Shown: one piece after another, positions 26,849-39,532 of the stretch
Position numbering within the stretch: the first letter of the stretch is position 1
Layout: the number at the start of each line of letters is the position of its first letter
The notes under the pieces: model-generated
Database searches by the model: none
Seen by the model: the letters and a program-made list of their open reading frames with translations, nothing else
Told to the model about the DNA's origin: nothing
Assembly: GCF_022884085.1 (NCBI RefSeq)
Contig: NZ_JAGGCS010000007.1
Span: 1 to 64,000 of the forward strand
DNA from: Paenirhizobium cremeum
GTDB taxonomy: Bacteria > Pseudomonadota > Alphaproteobacteria > Rhizobiales > Rhizobiaceae
Direction of reading: 5' to 3'
DNA: 64,000 nt
Made by a program: the position numbers and the translations under genes

Positions 26849-28036
26849 TTACGTGACGGACTTCGCGATGCGGAACTTCCGTTTCTCCAGTTCGGGGAAA
26901 TAGGTCGCTACATCGAAATAGCTTTCCGGCGCATGCACGCCCGGCTTCTTCGGACCGGCGAGAATGAGCTGCGCGGCGATGGAAGCATTCATCGACGTGC
27001 AGGCGTCGACATAGGGACCATACATGTCATCGGGCGAAACCGTGACTTCGACGCGAACGGTGCGTTCGACGCCATCCTTGCGGCCCCGGCCGATGGCGAA
27101 ATGGATTTCGTGGCTGTCCTGCGCCGGGATCTTGCCGGCGTTCTTCCGGATATTGCGTTCGATCACCTTGTTGAGAACGTCGAGCGGCTTCACCTTGACG
27201 CCGCCGATCTCGACCGGTTCGTCGAAATCGCCGAAGCCCGCCTTGACCAGCCCGACCCAGGCCTCGTGCTCCCGATGCGGCAGATGCAGCTTCCAGGAAA
27301 ATTCCCGGATGCCTTTTTCCCGGATGCCGTCGGCGAGCGGAACGGTAAGCTGTTCGGAGTGGGGCGAATGCATGAACTCGCAACGCCCCCACGGCTCCGG
27401 CAGATCGAGGAATTCGCTGCCGCTCATCGGCGGGCATTCCACATGCTTTCCGTCGTAGAACTGAGTGCTCGGATGGGCGTATTCGGCCAGCACCGTCGAG
27501 ACGCTGTAAGGCGGCACCAGCACCGGGTTTTCAGCGCCGACCAGTTCGGCGGCCCAGTAGAGATTGATCCGGTCGATCTCGTCCAGTTCGTCTGCAACCG
27601 CCCGGCAGATGACGTTCGACATGCCGGGATCGGCGCCGCAGCCGATGACGGCGGGCACGCCGGCCGCCTTGAAACGCTCATGTTCGGCAAGCTGCTTGAC
27701 GGTATAGGTGCCAAGGCCGCCAAGGTCCATGTATGGCACCTTGAGCGCGAGAGCCGCCTCGAAAATCGTCATCTGGAAGCCGAGCAGGGTCGGCACGCAG
27801 TTGATGCAGAGATCGGCGCAGGCAATCGCCGCCTTCAACGCTTCGGCATCGGTCACGTCGAGATCGACCAGCGCGATGCGCGGGTCGCCGAGATCGTTCG
27901 CCAGCGCTTCCATCTTCTCCCGCGAGGCGTCGCAGAGGCGGATGGTCCCGATGTCGATGATGGCGCGGTCCGAGAGGAGGTCGCGCACGATGCCCGCGCC
28001 CATGAAGCCTGCGCCGCCGAGAAGGGTGATAATCAT
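26849..28036 (-). CDS. Saccharopine dehydrogenase-like oxidoreductase
   Basis: NAD(P)-dependent oxidoreductase of the saccharopine dehydrogenase superfamily, 395 aa, cytoplasmic. The Rossmann start LGGAGFMGAG is at residues 5-14, followed by an acidic RLCDAS strand end. PYMDLGG and VIGCGADPGMSNV match the family's central region. Members oxidise or reduce secondary amines such as saccharopine, and carboxy(nor)spermidine dehydrogenases belong to the same superfamily. ATG 28036 has GGAAAG 5 nt upstream. It ends the long minus-strand unit that starts with a PotD-like binding protein, so an amine-type substrate is plausible. The true substrate is unknown. Confidence 0.78.
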   Translation of the reverse strand: MIITLLGGAGFMGAGIVRDLLSDRAIIDIGTIRLCDASREKMEALANDLGDPRIALVDLDVTDAEALKAAIACADLCINCVPTLLGFQMTIFEAALALKVPYMDLGGLGTYTVKQLAEHERFKAAGVPAVIGCGADPGMSNVICRAVADELDEIDRINLYWAAELVGAENPVLVPPYSVSTVLAEYAHPSTQFYDGKHVECPPMSGSEFLDLPEPWGRCEFMHSPHSEQLTVPLADGIREKGIREFSWKLHLPHREHEAWVGLVKAGFGDFDEPVEIGGVKVKPLDVLNKVIERNIRKNAGKIPAQDSHEIHFAIGRGRKDGVERTVRVEVTVSPDDMYGPYVDACTSMNASIAAQLILAGPKKPGVHAPESYFDVATYFPELEKRKFRIAKSVT

Positions 28037-28060
28037 TGATCTTTCCTTTGCATGCATGTT

Positions 28061-38037: not shown

Positions 38038-38050
38038 CGGGAGACATCGA

Positions 38051-39532
38051 ATGCGTGACAGGCTCTTCATCGACGGCAAGTGGCAGGCCCCGGCGAAGGG
38101 CGGCACCTTCCCGGTCATCGATCCGGCAACCGAAGAGCTGGTGCATCGGGCGCCCGCGGGCACGAAGGAAGACATCGACGCTGCCGTGAAAGCAGCACGC
38201 CTTGCCTTCGACCAGGGACCGTGGCCGAGACTTTCCGGCAGGGAACGGGCGAAGGTCCTTCGCCGCATCTCCGACATCATCCTCGCCCGCAAGCACGACC
38301 TTGCCAGGCTCGAAGTCATCGACAACGGCAAGCCCCTGCCGGAAGCCATCTGGGACATGGAGGATACGGCAGGCTGCTTCGCCTTTTATGCCGGCCTTGC
38401 CGAAGAGCTGGACGACAATCCGGAAGAGGCGATCGCGCTCGCCGAGCCCCGCTTTTCCTCAAAGGTCGTGCGGGAGCCGATCGGCGTCGCCGGCGCGATC
38501 ATCCCGTGGAACTATCCGCTGCTGATGGCCTCGTGGAAGGTGGCTCCCGCCCTTGCCGCCGGCTGCACCATGGTGCTGAAGCCTTCCGAACTGACGCCGC
38601 TCACCGCGCTGGAACTGGGCGCAATCGTCGAGGAAGCGGGTCTTCCCGCCGGCGTGCTGAACATTGTGACGGGGCTAGGCGCGGAGGCCGGCCAGCCGCT
38701 TTCTGAACATCCCGGCGTCGACAAGCTCGCCTTCACCGGCTCCGTGCCGACGGGCGCGAAGATCATGGCGGCGGCGGCACGCGACATCAAGAATGTCAGC
38801 CTGGAACTGGGCGGCAAGTCGCCTTTCGTCGTCTTCGCCGACAGCGACATCGAGAAGGCCGTCGAATGGATCATGTTCGGCATCTTCTGGAACCAGGGGC
38901 AGGTCTGCTCGGCAACCTCGCGGGTTCTGGTGGAAGACAGCCTCTACCCGGCTCTCATGCAGCGGCTTGTCGCCGAATCCGCGAAAATCCGCATCGGCAA
39001 CGGGCTTGAGGATGGAACGCTGCTCGGCCCGCTCGTCTCGAAGGGCCAGTATGACAAGGTTCTGGCCGCCATCGAACGCGGCAAGACGGAAGGTGCTGTC
39101 GTCGCCGGCGGCGGCAAGCGGCCCGCCGGTCTCGACAAGGGCTATTTCCTCGAGCCGACCGTCCTCACCGACATGGCGGAGGATAGCTTCGTCTGGACCG
39201 AGGAGATCTTCGGCCCCGTCGTCTGCGTCAGACCGTTCAGGGACGAAGCGGATGCGATCCGCATGGCGAACGACAGCCGCTTCGGCCTCGCCGCAGCCGT
39301 CATGTCGAAGGACAAGGCCCGCTGCGAACGGGTCGCCAGGGCCTTCCGCGCCGGGATCGTATGGATCAACTGCTCGCAGCCCACCTTCACCGAAGCGCCG
39401 TGGGGCGGCTACAAGCAGTCGGGCATCGGCCGCGAACTCGGCCGTTGGGGCCTTTCCAACTATCTCGAGACCAAACAGATCACCGCGTTCAACAGCGAGG
39501 AGCCCTGGGGCTGGTACATCAAGCCCGCCTGA
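38051..39532 (+). CDS. ALDH10-type aminoaldehyde/betaine aldehyde dehydrogenase
   Basis: NAD-dependent dehydrogenase of 493 aa. Key parts are IIPWNYPLLMASWKVAPALAAG, the catalytic Glu in LELGGKSP (about 257) and the nucleophile in NQGQVCSATSR (about 291). PWGGYKQSGIGREL and the end EPWGWYIKPA follow. The CSATSR context and the WGWY tail are those of the ALDH10 family, best known from plant betaine aldehyde and aminoaldehyde dehydrogenases that oxidise polyamine-derived aldehydes. GGGAG lies 7 bp before the ATG. It is the last gene of the plus-strand arm of the importer/glycosyltransferase divergon and points to an amine or aminoaldehyde intermediate. Confidence 0.88.
   Translation: MRDRLFIDGKWQAPAKGGTFPVIDPATEELVHRAPAGTKEDIDAAVKAARLAFDQGPWPRLSGRERAKVLRRISDIILARKHDLARLEVIDNGKPLPEAIWDMEDTAGCFAFYAGLAEELDDNPEEAIALAEPRFSSKVVREPIGVAGAIIPWNYPLLMASWKVAPALAAGCTMVLKPSELTPLTALELGAIVEEAGLPAGVLNIVTGLGAEAGQPLSEHPGVDKLAFTGSVPTGAKIMAAAARDIKNVSLELGGKSPFVVFADSDIEKAVEWIMFGIFWNQGQVCSATSRVLVEDSLYPALMQRLVAESAKIRIGNGLEDGTLLGPLVSKGQYDKVLAAIERGKTEGAVVAGGGKRPAGLDKGYFLEPTVLTDMAEDSFVWTEEIFGPVVCVRPFRDEADAIRMANDSRFGLAAAVMSKDKARCERVARAFRAGIVWINCSQPTFTEAPWGGYKQSGIGRELGRWGLSNYLETKQITAFNSEEPWGWYIKPA

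What the first reader, a model, noticed from the sequence alone, without database searches (positions are those of the whole stretch)
26849..39532. Divergent importer-glycosyltransferase-aminoaldehyde cluster of unknown pathway
One arm encodes a PotDBCA-like importer, a GT-B glycosyltransferase, two cupin_3 proteins, an aldehyde dehydrogenase and a saccharopine-dehydrogenase-like enzyme. The other encodes a regulator with two winged helices, a second glycosyltransferase and an ALDH10 enzyme. Seen: tight spacing and overlaps in each arm. Known: ALDH10 enzymes oxidise amine-derived aldehydes, and some saccharopine-dehydrogenase relatives act on polyamines. Inference: an imported cationic compound is oxidised while it or a product is glycosylated, perhaps as detoxification or to make a signal. 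I know no described pathway with this set.
Basis: partly seen in the sequence, partly recalled or inferred. Interest (0 to 1): 0.78.

Follow-up and report, generated by a model that had tools for sequence, protein, structure and literature searches.

The report
Amine-uptake operon with paired glycosyltransferases
A conserved set of genes in soil and marine bacteria appears to take up and break down an amine compound with the help of unusual sugar-attaching enzymes, which hints that sugar is used as a temporary handle during breakdown; reduced versions of the set also occur in actinobacteria and in salt-loving archaea.

Summary
In detail: all twelve genes are at the stated coordinates, in two tight divergent arms. 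Reduced forms occur on haloarchaeal plasmids and in actinobacteria: importer-GT in Streptomyces, importer-GT-aminobutyraldehyde dehydrogenase in Nonomuraea. Relatives add a glutamine-synthetase relative plus FAD oxidase (19 of 80 loci) or sugar-handling genes. The GTs lack the GT1 catalytic histidine but keep its Asp partner, as recalled for human amine N-glucuronidating UGTs. Best reading: uptake and oxidation of a cationic amine with a sugar put on the amine, an analogue of gamma-glutamylation. Genes, order and substitutions are shown; acceptor, sugar and chemistry are inferred. The paper listings seen show no description of the set.

The parts
34521..35579 (-). PotD-like solute-binding protein
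   Evidence: PotD family; W34, Y37, W229, W255, Y293, D257 kept; D168T, E171W, S232W in 81 of 81 orthologues
33545..34450 (-). PotB-like permease
32757..33548 (-). PotC-like permease
31717..32760 (-). PotA-like ATPase
30405..31697 (-). GT-A, GT1/UGT-like glycosyltransferase lacking the catalytic His (Pro15), Asp126 kept, donor-motif Gln replaced by Gly356
30050..30409 (-). cupin_3 protein 1 (overlaps the GT-A stop)
   Evidence: cupins fused into one protein in 6 relatives
29673..30020 (-). cupin_3 protein 2
28061..29575 (-). ALDH-A, aldehyde dehydrogenase of the conserved core
   Evidence: 76 of 76 loci with room
26849..28057 (-). saccharopine-dehydrogenase-like NAD(P) enzyme (accessory)
   Evidence: 42 of 73 loci with room
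35659..35688 (+). conserved operator-like element AGTATTATTTnnnAAAAAAATACGTCAATA in the divergent promoter region
   Evidence: core ATTGACGTA in the divergent region of 61 of 76 loci against 4 sites in 1.47 Mb elsewhere; single site in the 5.33 Mb genome at up to 3 mismatches
35794..36726 (+). GntR regulator with two wHTH matches and an FCD domain
36733..38037 (+). GT-B, second GT1/UGT-like glycosyltransferase lacking the catalytic His (Ala), Asp kept, Gln to Gly
38051..39532 (+). ALDH-B, ALDH10 (aminoaldehyde/betaine-aldehyde dehydrogenase) (accessory)
   Evidence: 39 of 78 loci with room

Best explanation
A laterally moving, self-regulated amine-utilisation module. The importer brings in a cationic amine, more likely with one charged nitrogen in an aromatic cage than a long polyamine. 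GT1 enzymes without the usual catalytic histidine put a sugar from a UDP-sugar on the amine (GT-A on the substrate, GT-B on a second amine or a later intermediate). The sugar shields the amine or keeps the aminoaldehyde from cyclising, as gamma-glutamyl does in the Puu pathway; an amine oxidase makes the aldehyde, ALDH-A (and where present ALDH10) oxidises it, the cupins isomerise or cleave the sugar conjugate, and the freed sugar is re-activated (AmgK-like or glucosamine-kinase-like kinase, or kinase plus phosphohexomutase). GntR controls both arms from one operator. Shown: genes, order, conservation, active-site substitutions, conserved element, linked genes in relatives. Inferred: N-glycosylation, its transience, the sugar, the role of the cupins, the operator's partner and the order of steps.
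For: Core GT-A + cupins + ALDH-A in every locus with room, nearly always with importer, GntR and GT-B. No His in columns 8-22 of any of 168 GT rows; the catalytic column is Pro in 86 of 88 GT-A and Ala in 80 of 80 GT-B, the partner Asp is kept in 168 of 168 (ungapped against UGT203A2). Human UGTs that N-glucuronidate amines (passages in PMC4211562 and PMC8781437) lack that His (recalled; Kerdpin 2009 seen only as a reference). Importer-GT pairing reaches actinobacteria at 34-35% GT identity: Streptomyces L131 and Nonomuraea L157, the latter with an ALDH directly behind the GT that passes the aminobutyraldehyde-dehydrogenase cut-off (625 against 615 bits), and, divergent from PotD, a kinase closest to glucosamine kinase (235 bits, cut-off 550) and a SIS-domain protein. 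GS-family gene plus FAD oxidase directly behind GT-B in 19 of 80 loci; GS directly behind ALDH-A in 4 more; FAD oxidase behind ALDH-A in L138. AmgK-like kinase between cupin and ALDH-A in 6 of 80 loci and 3 of 3 fetched from another family, in four places of the GT-A tree. Haloarchaea have ROK-kinase and phosphohexomutase genes next to ALDH-A. The window genome has GS/FAD-oxidase pairs elsewhere.
Against: No glycosidase is in the set, so release of the sugar is unexplained unless a cupin does it or the glycosylamine hydrolyses by itself. Where GS is present it would already protect the amine. The GS genes score best with the type III glutamine synthetase model, gamma-glutamylputrescine synthetase only third, and the FAD oxidases with pipecolate and aminophosphonate oxidase models, all below cut-off. 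Sugar-handling genes are a minority: AmgK-like 6 of 80, mutarotase 2 of 80 (sister loci), ROK and phosphohexomutase 0 of 80; the archaeal ROK gene is on the opposite strand and all kinases score below cut-off. The window genome's one AmgK-like gene lies elsewhere. Streptomyces L130 has Pro at the His column with no cluster gene in 19 kb, so the loss is not specific to the module. Streptomyces L131 has no ALDH or cupin match but an NMT1-type ABC transporter and an allantoinase/hydantoinase-like gene next to the GT, which may point to a nitrogen heterocycle. The archaeal clusters have one cupin and no GT-B in the plasmid record. No structure, no assay.
Confidence: 0.4

Rival explanations
1. Amine catabolism as above, but the GTs are a detoxification or overflow branch: excess amine or aminoaldehyde is glycosylated and parked or exported, off the main route.
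For: The GT1 family is best known for detoxification; nearest solved relatives are spider-mite UGTs, a family tied to detoxification (PMC4652392 passages).
Against: GT-A + cupins + ALDH-A is the only part never missing where there is room and survives in archaea without GT-B; sugar kinases sit inside or beside the operon in some lineages, which suits recycling or donor supply better than waste. No exporter is among the genes counted; exporters were not searched for otherwise.
Confidence: 0.22
2. A biosynthetic module: the imported amine is oxidised to an amino acid or betaine and glycosylated into an osmolyte, signal or opine-like product.
For: ALDH10 makes betaines in plants (established knowledge; ALDH10 membership); occurrence in marine and haloarchaeal hosts.
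Against: A dedicated importer and a divergent GntR/FCD regulator are the usual layout of catabolic operons (general knowledge); GS-family and FAD-oxidase genes in relatives look catabolic; ALDH10 is accessory.
Confidence: 0.12
3. The imported ligand is itself a glycosylated amine or N-heterocycle and the GTs run backwards with UDP to free it, or the GTs are non-catalytic binding subunits.
For: Two extra tryptophans in the binding site (E171W, S232W) could stack on a sugar or ring; catalytic His absent in both GTs; hydantoinase-like gene beside the Streptomyces importer-GT unit.
Against: Reversal would yield UDP-sugar, so linked sugar kinases and mutarotase would be idle; donor-site residues and the catalytic Asp are invariant, unlike a dead enzyme.
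Confidence: 0.12
4. The sugar is the amino-group acceptor: the glycosylamine is tautomerised by the cupins, the carbon chain leaves as aldehyde for ALDH-A, and the nitrogen leaves as an amino sugar.
For: Would explain why core loci can lack an amine oxidase or aminotransferase and why sugar genes nearby lean to glucosamine types: AmgK-like, GlmM-like, glucosamine-kinase-like, GlmS/NagB-like SIS, a GlmU-like neighbour in L078.
Against: No precedent known to me; an FAD oxidase is present in 19 of 80 loci; all these family matches are below cut-off or may be chance neighbours.
Confidence: 0.07
5. Known polyamine utilisation (Puu/Pau) with accidental GT neighbours.
For: PotABCD homology, GS-family/FAD oxidase/ALDH in relatives.
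Against: GT-B is conserved beside GT-A in 74 of 77 loci with room; importer-GT linkage extends to two actinobacteria; D168 and E171 of PotD are not conserved; the window cluster has no GS, FAD oxidase or PuuD.
Confidence: 0.05

Closest known systems
Puu/Pau gamma-glutamylated polyamine pathway
   Same: Pot-type importer, aldehyde dehydrogenase; in 19 of 80 relatives also a GS-family gene and an FAD oxidase
   Different: GT-A and cupins are the fixed part; no GS, FAD oxidase or PuuD in the window cluster; importer site altered
GT1 / UDP-glycosyltransferases (UGT203A2, UGT202A2, macrolide MGT family)
   Same: Homology over nearly the full length, HGG motif, catalytic Asp
   Different: No catalytic His; Gln of the donor motif is Gly; below NCBIfam MGT cut-off (106 and 127 against 260 bits)
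Human N-glucuronidating UGT1A4 / UGT2B10
   Same: Act on amines (PMC4211562, by context UGT1A4, and PMC8781437 passages); catalytic His replaced (recalled), Asp kept (recalled)
   Different: Eukaryotic membrane enzymes for drugs; no operon; the acceptor here is unknown
Plant ALDH10 aminoaldehyde/betaine-aldehyde dehydrogenases
   Same: ALDH-B is closest to them among solved structures
   Different: Present in only 39 of 78 loci with room
AmgK-MurU sugar salvage
   Same: An AmgK-like kinase inside the operon in some relatives
   Different: Below the AmgK equivalog cut-off (243 against 500 bits); no MurU-like gene noticed among the gene calls printed, not searched by profile

Membership tests
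Puu/Pau gamma-glutamyl polyamine pathway | gamma-glutamylamine synthetase (GS-like) in the cluster | tested here: not met
   None in the window cluster; GS-family gene in relatives and elsewhere in the genome at 46% identity to the relative's GS
Puu/Pau gamma-glutamyl polyamine pathway | FAD-dependent gamma-glutamylamine oxidase in the cluster | tested here: not met
   None in the window cluster; DAO-family gene beside GS in 19 of 80 relatives; others elsewhere in the genome
Puu/Pau gamma-glutamyl polyamine pathway | aldehyde dehydrogenase | tested here: met
   ALDH-A and ALDH-B
PotABCD polyamine importer | binding protein, two permeases and ATPase in one operon | tested here: met
PotABCD polyamine importer | polyamine-binding residues D168, E171, D257 and aromatic residues of PotD | tested here: not met
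   D257 and W34/Y37/W229/Y293 kept in 81 of 81, W255 in 80; D168T and E171W in 81 of 81; Y85 and Q327 changed; residue roles recalled
GT1 / UGT glycosyltransferases | GT1 C-terminal donor-binding domain with HGG motif | tested here: met
GT1 / UGT glycosyltransferases | catalytic His near the N-terminus | tested here: not met
   Pro in 86 of 88 GT-A rows, Ala in 80 of 80 GT-B, no His in columns 8-22; some GT1 members are recalled to lack it
GT1 / UGT glycosyltransferases | UDP-sugar transfer activity | not testable with these tools
   needs enzyme assay
ALDH10 | closer to aminoaldehyde/chloroplastic BADH than to other BADH structures | tested here: met
   644 against 473 bits
carboxy(nor)spermidine dehydrogenase | equivalog score NF043000 (cut-off 800 bits) | tested here: not met
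   P0001 scores 28.8 bits; distant match to carboxyspermidine dehydrogenase 8deb

The most novel reading that the evidence does not exclude
Bacteria and archaea share an amine-oxidation route in which a sugar, put on the amine nitrogen by histidine-less GT1 enzymes and then recycled, replaces or supplements gamma-glutamate as the removable group: glycosylation used as a catalytic step of catabolism, not for detoxification or storage. In its boldest form the sugar also carries the nitrogen away as an amino sugar.
Probability: 0.35. Interest if true: 0.87.

Novelty: new variant of a known kind. Interest (0 to 1): 0.72.

Why it matters
If true, it adds a second chemistry for handling reactive amines and aminoaldehydes in nitrogen catabolism and gives a function to a clade of unassigned bacterial GT1 enzymes related to the glycosyltransferases that spider mites are held to have acquired from bacteria. 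It is also a natural test case for whether loss of the GT1 catalytic histidine marks nitrogen acceptors. Even if the mechanism is wrong, a module of 10-12 genes kept together over several proteobacterial families, with reduced versions in actinobacteria and haloarchaea, lacks a known substrate and is directly testable.

Tried and rejected
Rejected: accidental juxtaposition; macrolide glycosylation (NCBIfam MGT score below cut-off); carboxyspermidine/saccharopine metabolism as the core (SDH-like gene accessory, scores far below cut-off); plain polyamine import; a wider GntR regulon (one site in the genome at up to 3 mismatches). A first neighbour-clustering script was spoiled by shadow ORFs and was replaced by marker searches and codon-usage gene calls. 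The homologues on Streptomyces L130 and Pseudomonas L037 are not in such a cluster. Because of this I raised the best explanation from 0.38 to 0.40 and the novel case from 0.33 to 0.35. The cupin_3 search gave one uncharacterised structure (3bcw). Papers: only listings were seen for (3 papers; 15 of 153; 12 of 370; 6 of 81); two searches found no paper with all terms.

Limits: alignment rows come from my own simple gene calls; the two GT-A rows without Pro are L065 (called start too late) and L139 (reads Met at a start that may be cut). Counts use identity thresholds and only loci with enough flank. The 80 loci are the best of 359 relatives, lean to Rhizobiaceae and Mesorhizobium, and are not independent events. 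In the tree the haloarchaeal, L138 and other-family rows are long branches of unsure place. The operator core was picked from the same regions in which it was then counted; as a 12-mer at up to 2 mismatches at least one window match is found in 48 of 100 shuffles, though the match in the window is exact. AmgK profiles were run on L136 only; L053, L084 and L089 were checked as APH family. The two actinobacterial clusters are single records. L154 and L155 were fetched and not analysed.
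Full report
Observation. The twelve genes are present as described and were translated one by one. Pfam and NCBIfam on nine of them give: Sacchrp_dh_NADP + Sacchrp_dh_C; Aldedh twice; Cupin_3 twice; UDPGT/EryCIII-like_C glycosyltransferases twice; SBP_bac_8; GntR in two stretches plus FCD. PotA, PotB and PotC are named from annotated orthologues. Overlaps or gaps of a few bases tie GT-A to cupin 1, PotA to PotC, PotC to PotB, and ALDH-A to the saccharopine-dehydrogenase-like gene. 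ALDH-B is ALDH10 by its nearest solved structures.

Conservation. Of 199 genomes of the window's family 23 hold GT-A (E <= 1e-80), the own genome included, and 22 of the 23 hold GT-B a few kilobases away on the other strand. Of 398 genomes drawn from the phylum 8 have a match (E <= 1e-60, own included; one of them, G206, with GT-A only); in one genus of another family 17 of 25. One scan of named genomes found 359 relatives, of which the best 80 were fetched. With room on the contig, cupin 1 is there in 77 of 77, cupin 2 in 77 of 77, ALDH-A in 76 of 76, PotA in 78 of 80, PotC in 77 of 80, PotB in 76 of 79, PotD in 75 of 78, GntR in 75 of 78, GT-B in 74 of 77; ALDH10 only in 39 of 78 and the SDH-like gene in 42 of 73. 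L084, L085 and L088 (two Acidocella MAGs and one unplaced MAG) lack GntR, GT-B and the PotD, PotB and PotC orthologues; L088 has a Pot transporter of another kind instead. Nine plasmid records of Rhizobium, Shinella, Sinorhizobium, Pararhizobium and Ruegeria hold two GT places each; the full neighbourhood was read in two, R. daejeonense and Ruegeria conchae, the latter without ALDH10 and the SDH-like gene beside it. Plasmids of Natrialba magadii and Natronorubrum aibiense carry GT-A (60%) - cupin - ALDH-A. The GT-A tree mixes families, so lateral transfer is likely; long branches make details unsure.

Actinobacteria. In Streptomyces sp. NBC_01483 (L131) a 34% GT follows PotD, PotB, PotC and PotA (53-57% to the window's), the GT start overlapping the PotA stop, and the binding protein has the same Thr168, Trp171 and Trp232. 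Behind it come an NMT1-type ABC transporter and an allantoinase/hydantoinase-like gene, with no cupin or ALDH match. In Nonomuraea gerenzanensis (L157) PotDBCA (50-53%) precede a TetR-type gene on the other strand, the GT (35%) and, 35 bases on, an ALDH that passes the NCBI subfamily cut-off for aminobutyraldehyde dehydrogenase; divergent from PotD lie a gene closest to glucosamine kinase and a SIS-domain gene. Both GTs read ESAYGP at the loop where GT1 enzymes have the catalytic His. A third homologue, in Streptomyces coeruleorubidus (L130), also has Pro but no cluster gene within 19 kb.

What sits in the variable slots. (a) Behind GT-B, 37 of the 39 loci with ALDH10 have it there (36 by the script, plus L050 where the two overlap slightly; the other two, L089 and L098, have it in the other arm); 19 Mesorhizobium loci have instead a GS-family gene and a DAO-family FAD oxidase on the same strand, and none of the 19 has ALDH10. 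The GS genes match the type III glutamine synthetase model best and gamma-glutamylputrescine synthetase third (L090: 229 and 190 bits), below all cut-offs; the FAD oxidases match pipecolate and aminophosphonate oxidase models, below cut-off. Four further loci have GS directly behind ALDH-A (L096, L104, L106, L117), and L138 has the FAD oxidase there. (b) Between cupin 2 and ALDH-A, six of the 80 loci and the three loci fetched from the other family have an APH-family kinase, in L136 closest to the MurNAc/GlcNAc kinase AmgK (243 bits, cut-off 500). L089 and L098, sister loci, add an aldose 1-epimerase; a search of the other loci found one weak partial match (L066). (c) The haloarchaeal clusters have a ROK glucokinase-like gene (on the opposite strand) and a phosphoglucosamine/phosphoglucomutase-like gene behind ALDH-A; neither occurs in the 80 loci. 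So several non-homologous sugar-activating genes recur beside GT-A, each in a minority. (d) A second PotABCD with an SDR oxidoreductase lies near the cluster in L034 and eight Mesorhizobium loci.

Active sites. Against UGT203A2 the alignment through the N-terminal loop is ungapped: FGH in UGT203A2 is FGP in GT-A and YGA in GT-B; against UGT202A2 there are small gaps. Over all rows: Pro in 86 of 88 GT-A, Ala in 80 of 80 GT-B; the partner Asp (D126) in 168 of 168; the Gln of the donor motif is Gly in 168 of 168, but Gln in the two Streptomyces homologues aligned. No row has His in columns 8-22. Recalled, not from a call: the GT1 base is this His, and human UGT1A4 (Pro) and UGT2B10 (Leu) lack it. 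From passages: an isoform that is UGT1A4 by context N-glucuronidates primary, secondary and tertiary amines (PMC4211562), UGT2B10 tertiary amines (PMC8781437); the mutagenesis papers were seen as references only. The Gln-to-Gly change may fit a donor such as UDP-GlcNAc, which AmgK-like, GlmM-like and glucosamine-kinase-like partners would also suit; this is speculation.

Importer. The pocket looks like an aromatic cage with one acid: a ligand with one cationic group, possibly alkylated, aromatic or carrying a sugar, fits better than a long polyamine.

Regulation. A 30-bp element in the divergent region (window 35659-35688) is conserved: its 9-mer core, chosen from these regions, is there in 61 of 76 loci against 4 sites in the remaining 1.47 Mb, and the whole element occurs once in the window's genome. 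This supports one dedicated regulator for both arms; that GntR binds it is inferred.

Interpretation. Shown: a conserved import-glycosyltransferase-oxidation module with amine-oxidation and sugar-activation genes as exchangeable parts. Inferred: the GTs glycosylate an amine nitrogen and the sugar comes off again. Weak points: no deglycosylating enzyme is evident, sugar genes are in a minority of loci and below family cut-offs, GS beside GT-B in Mesorhizobium means two kinds of protection would coexist, and the Streptomyces neighbour points to a heterocycle as an alternative substrate. I rate the specific mechanism 0.40 and the broader statement (an amine-utilisation module that needs glycosylation) about 0.7.

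Literature. The listings seen for the gene set (long lists were capped) show no paper describing it; a review of bacterial polyamine and ethanolamine metabolism has no word beginning glycosyl, glucosyl or cupin (PMC9397018, word search).

Noticed in passing
window 30405-31697 and 36733-38037: The closest solved structures to both GTs are spider-mite UGT203A2 and UGT202A2, ahead of bacterial macrolide GTs; mite UGTs are held to come from bacteria (PMC4652392 passages), so this clade may be near the donor lineage.
   Followed up: partly
L131:5120-14940: Streptomyces sp. NBC_01483: PotDBCA-GT followed by an NMT1-type ABC transporter and an allantoinase/hydantoinase-like gene, a hint at a nitrogen heterocycle as substrate.
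   Followed up: partly
L157:3111-12705: Nonomuraea gerenzanensis: SIS-domain gene and glucosamine-kinase-like gene divergent from PotDBCA-TetR-GT-ALDH; a SIS protein beside a kinase recalls fructosamine deglycase systems (recalled, not tested).
   Followed up: partly
L089:8574-9302, L096:11269-11991, L098:4380-5108, L106:11269-11991, L108:11269-11982, L117:2940-3659: The two cupins are fused into one bicupin protein in six loci, which suggests they form a complex; several other loci have a third, diverged cupin.
   Followed up: partly
L034:177-1695 and 17770-18896: IS6 and IS3 family transposases flank the Ruegeria conchae copy on its plasmid, with an IS3 element just behind ALDH-A.
   Followed up: no
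L078:699-2036: A GlmU-like gene (nucleotidyltransferase plus hexapeptide repeats) lies directly behind ALDH-B in this locus; may be chance.
   Followed up: no
L101 and L108, 13.6-19.8 kb: In two Defluviimonas loci a cytosine-deaminase-family gene, in L108 with a BMP-type transporter, lies downstream of ALDH-A; link to the module not tested.
   Followed up: no
L037:10264-10923: Pieces of a homologue of the GTs (45-50%) lie among type VI secretion genes on a Pseudomonas frederiksbergensis plasmid; interrupted, left as it is.
   Followed up: no
G000 C9:25851-28487 and C9:78194-80809: The window's genome has two GS-family plus FAD-oxidase pairs on another contig, which could supply those steps in trans.
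   Followed up: partly
window 22646-24811: A 721-aa membrane glycosyltransferase that looks like cellulose synthase BcsA (named from memory of the family, no family search run) next to the cluster.
   Followed up: no
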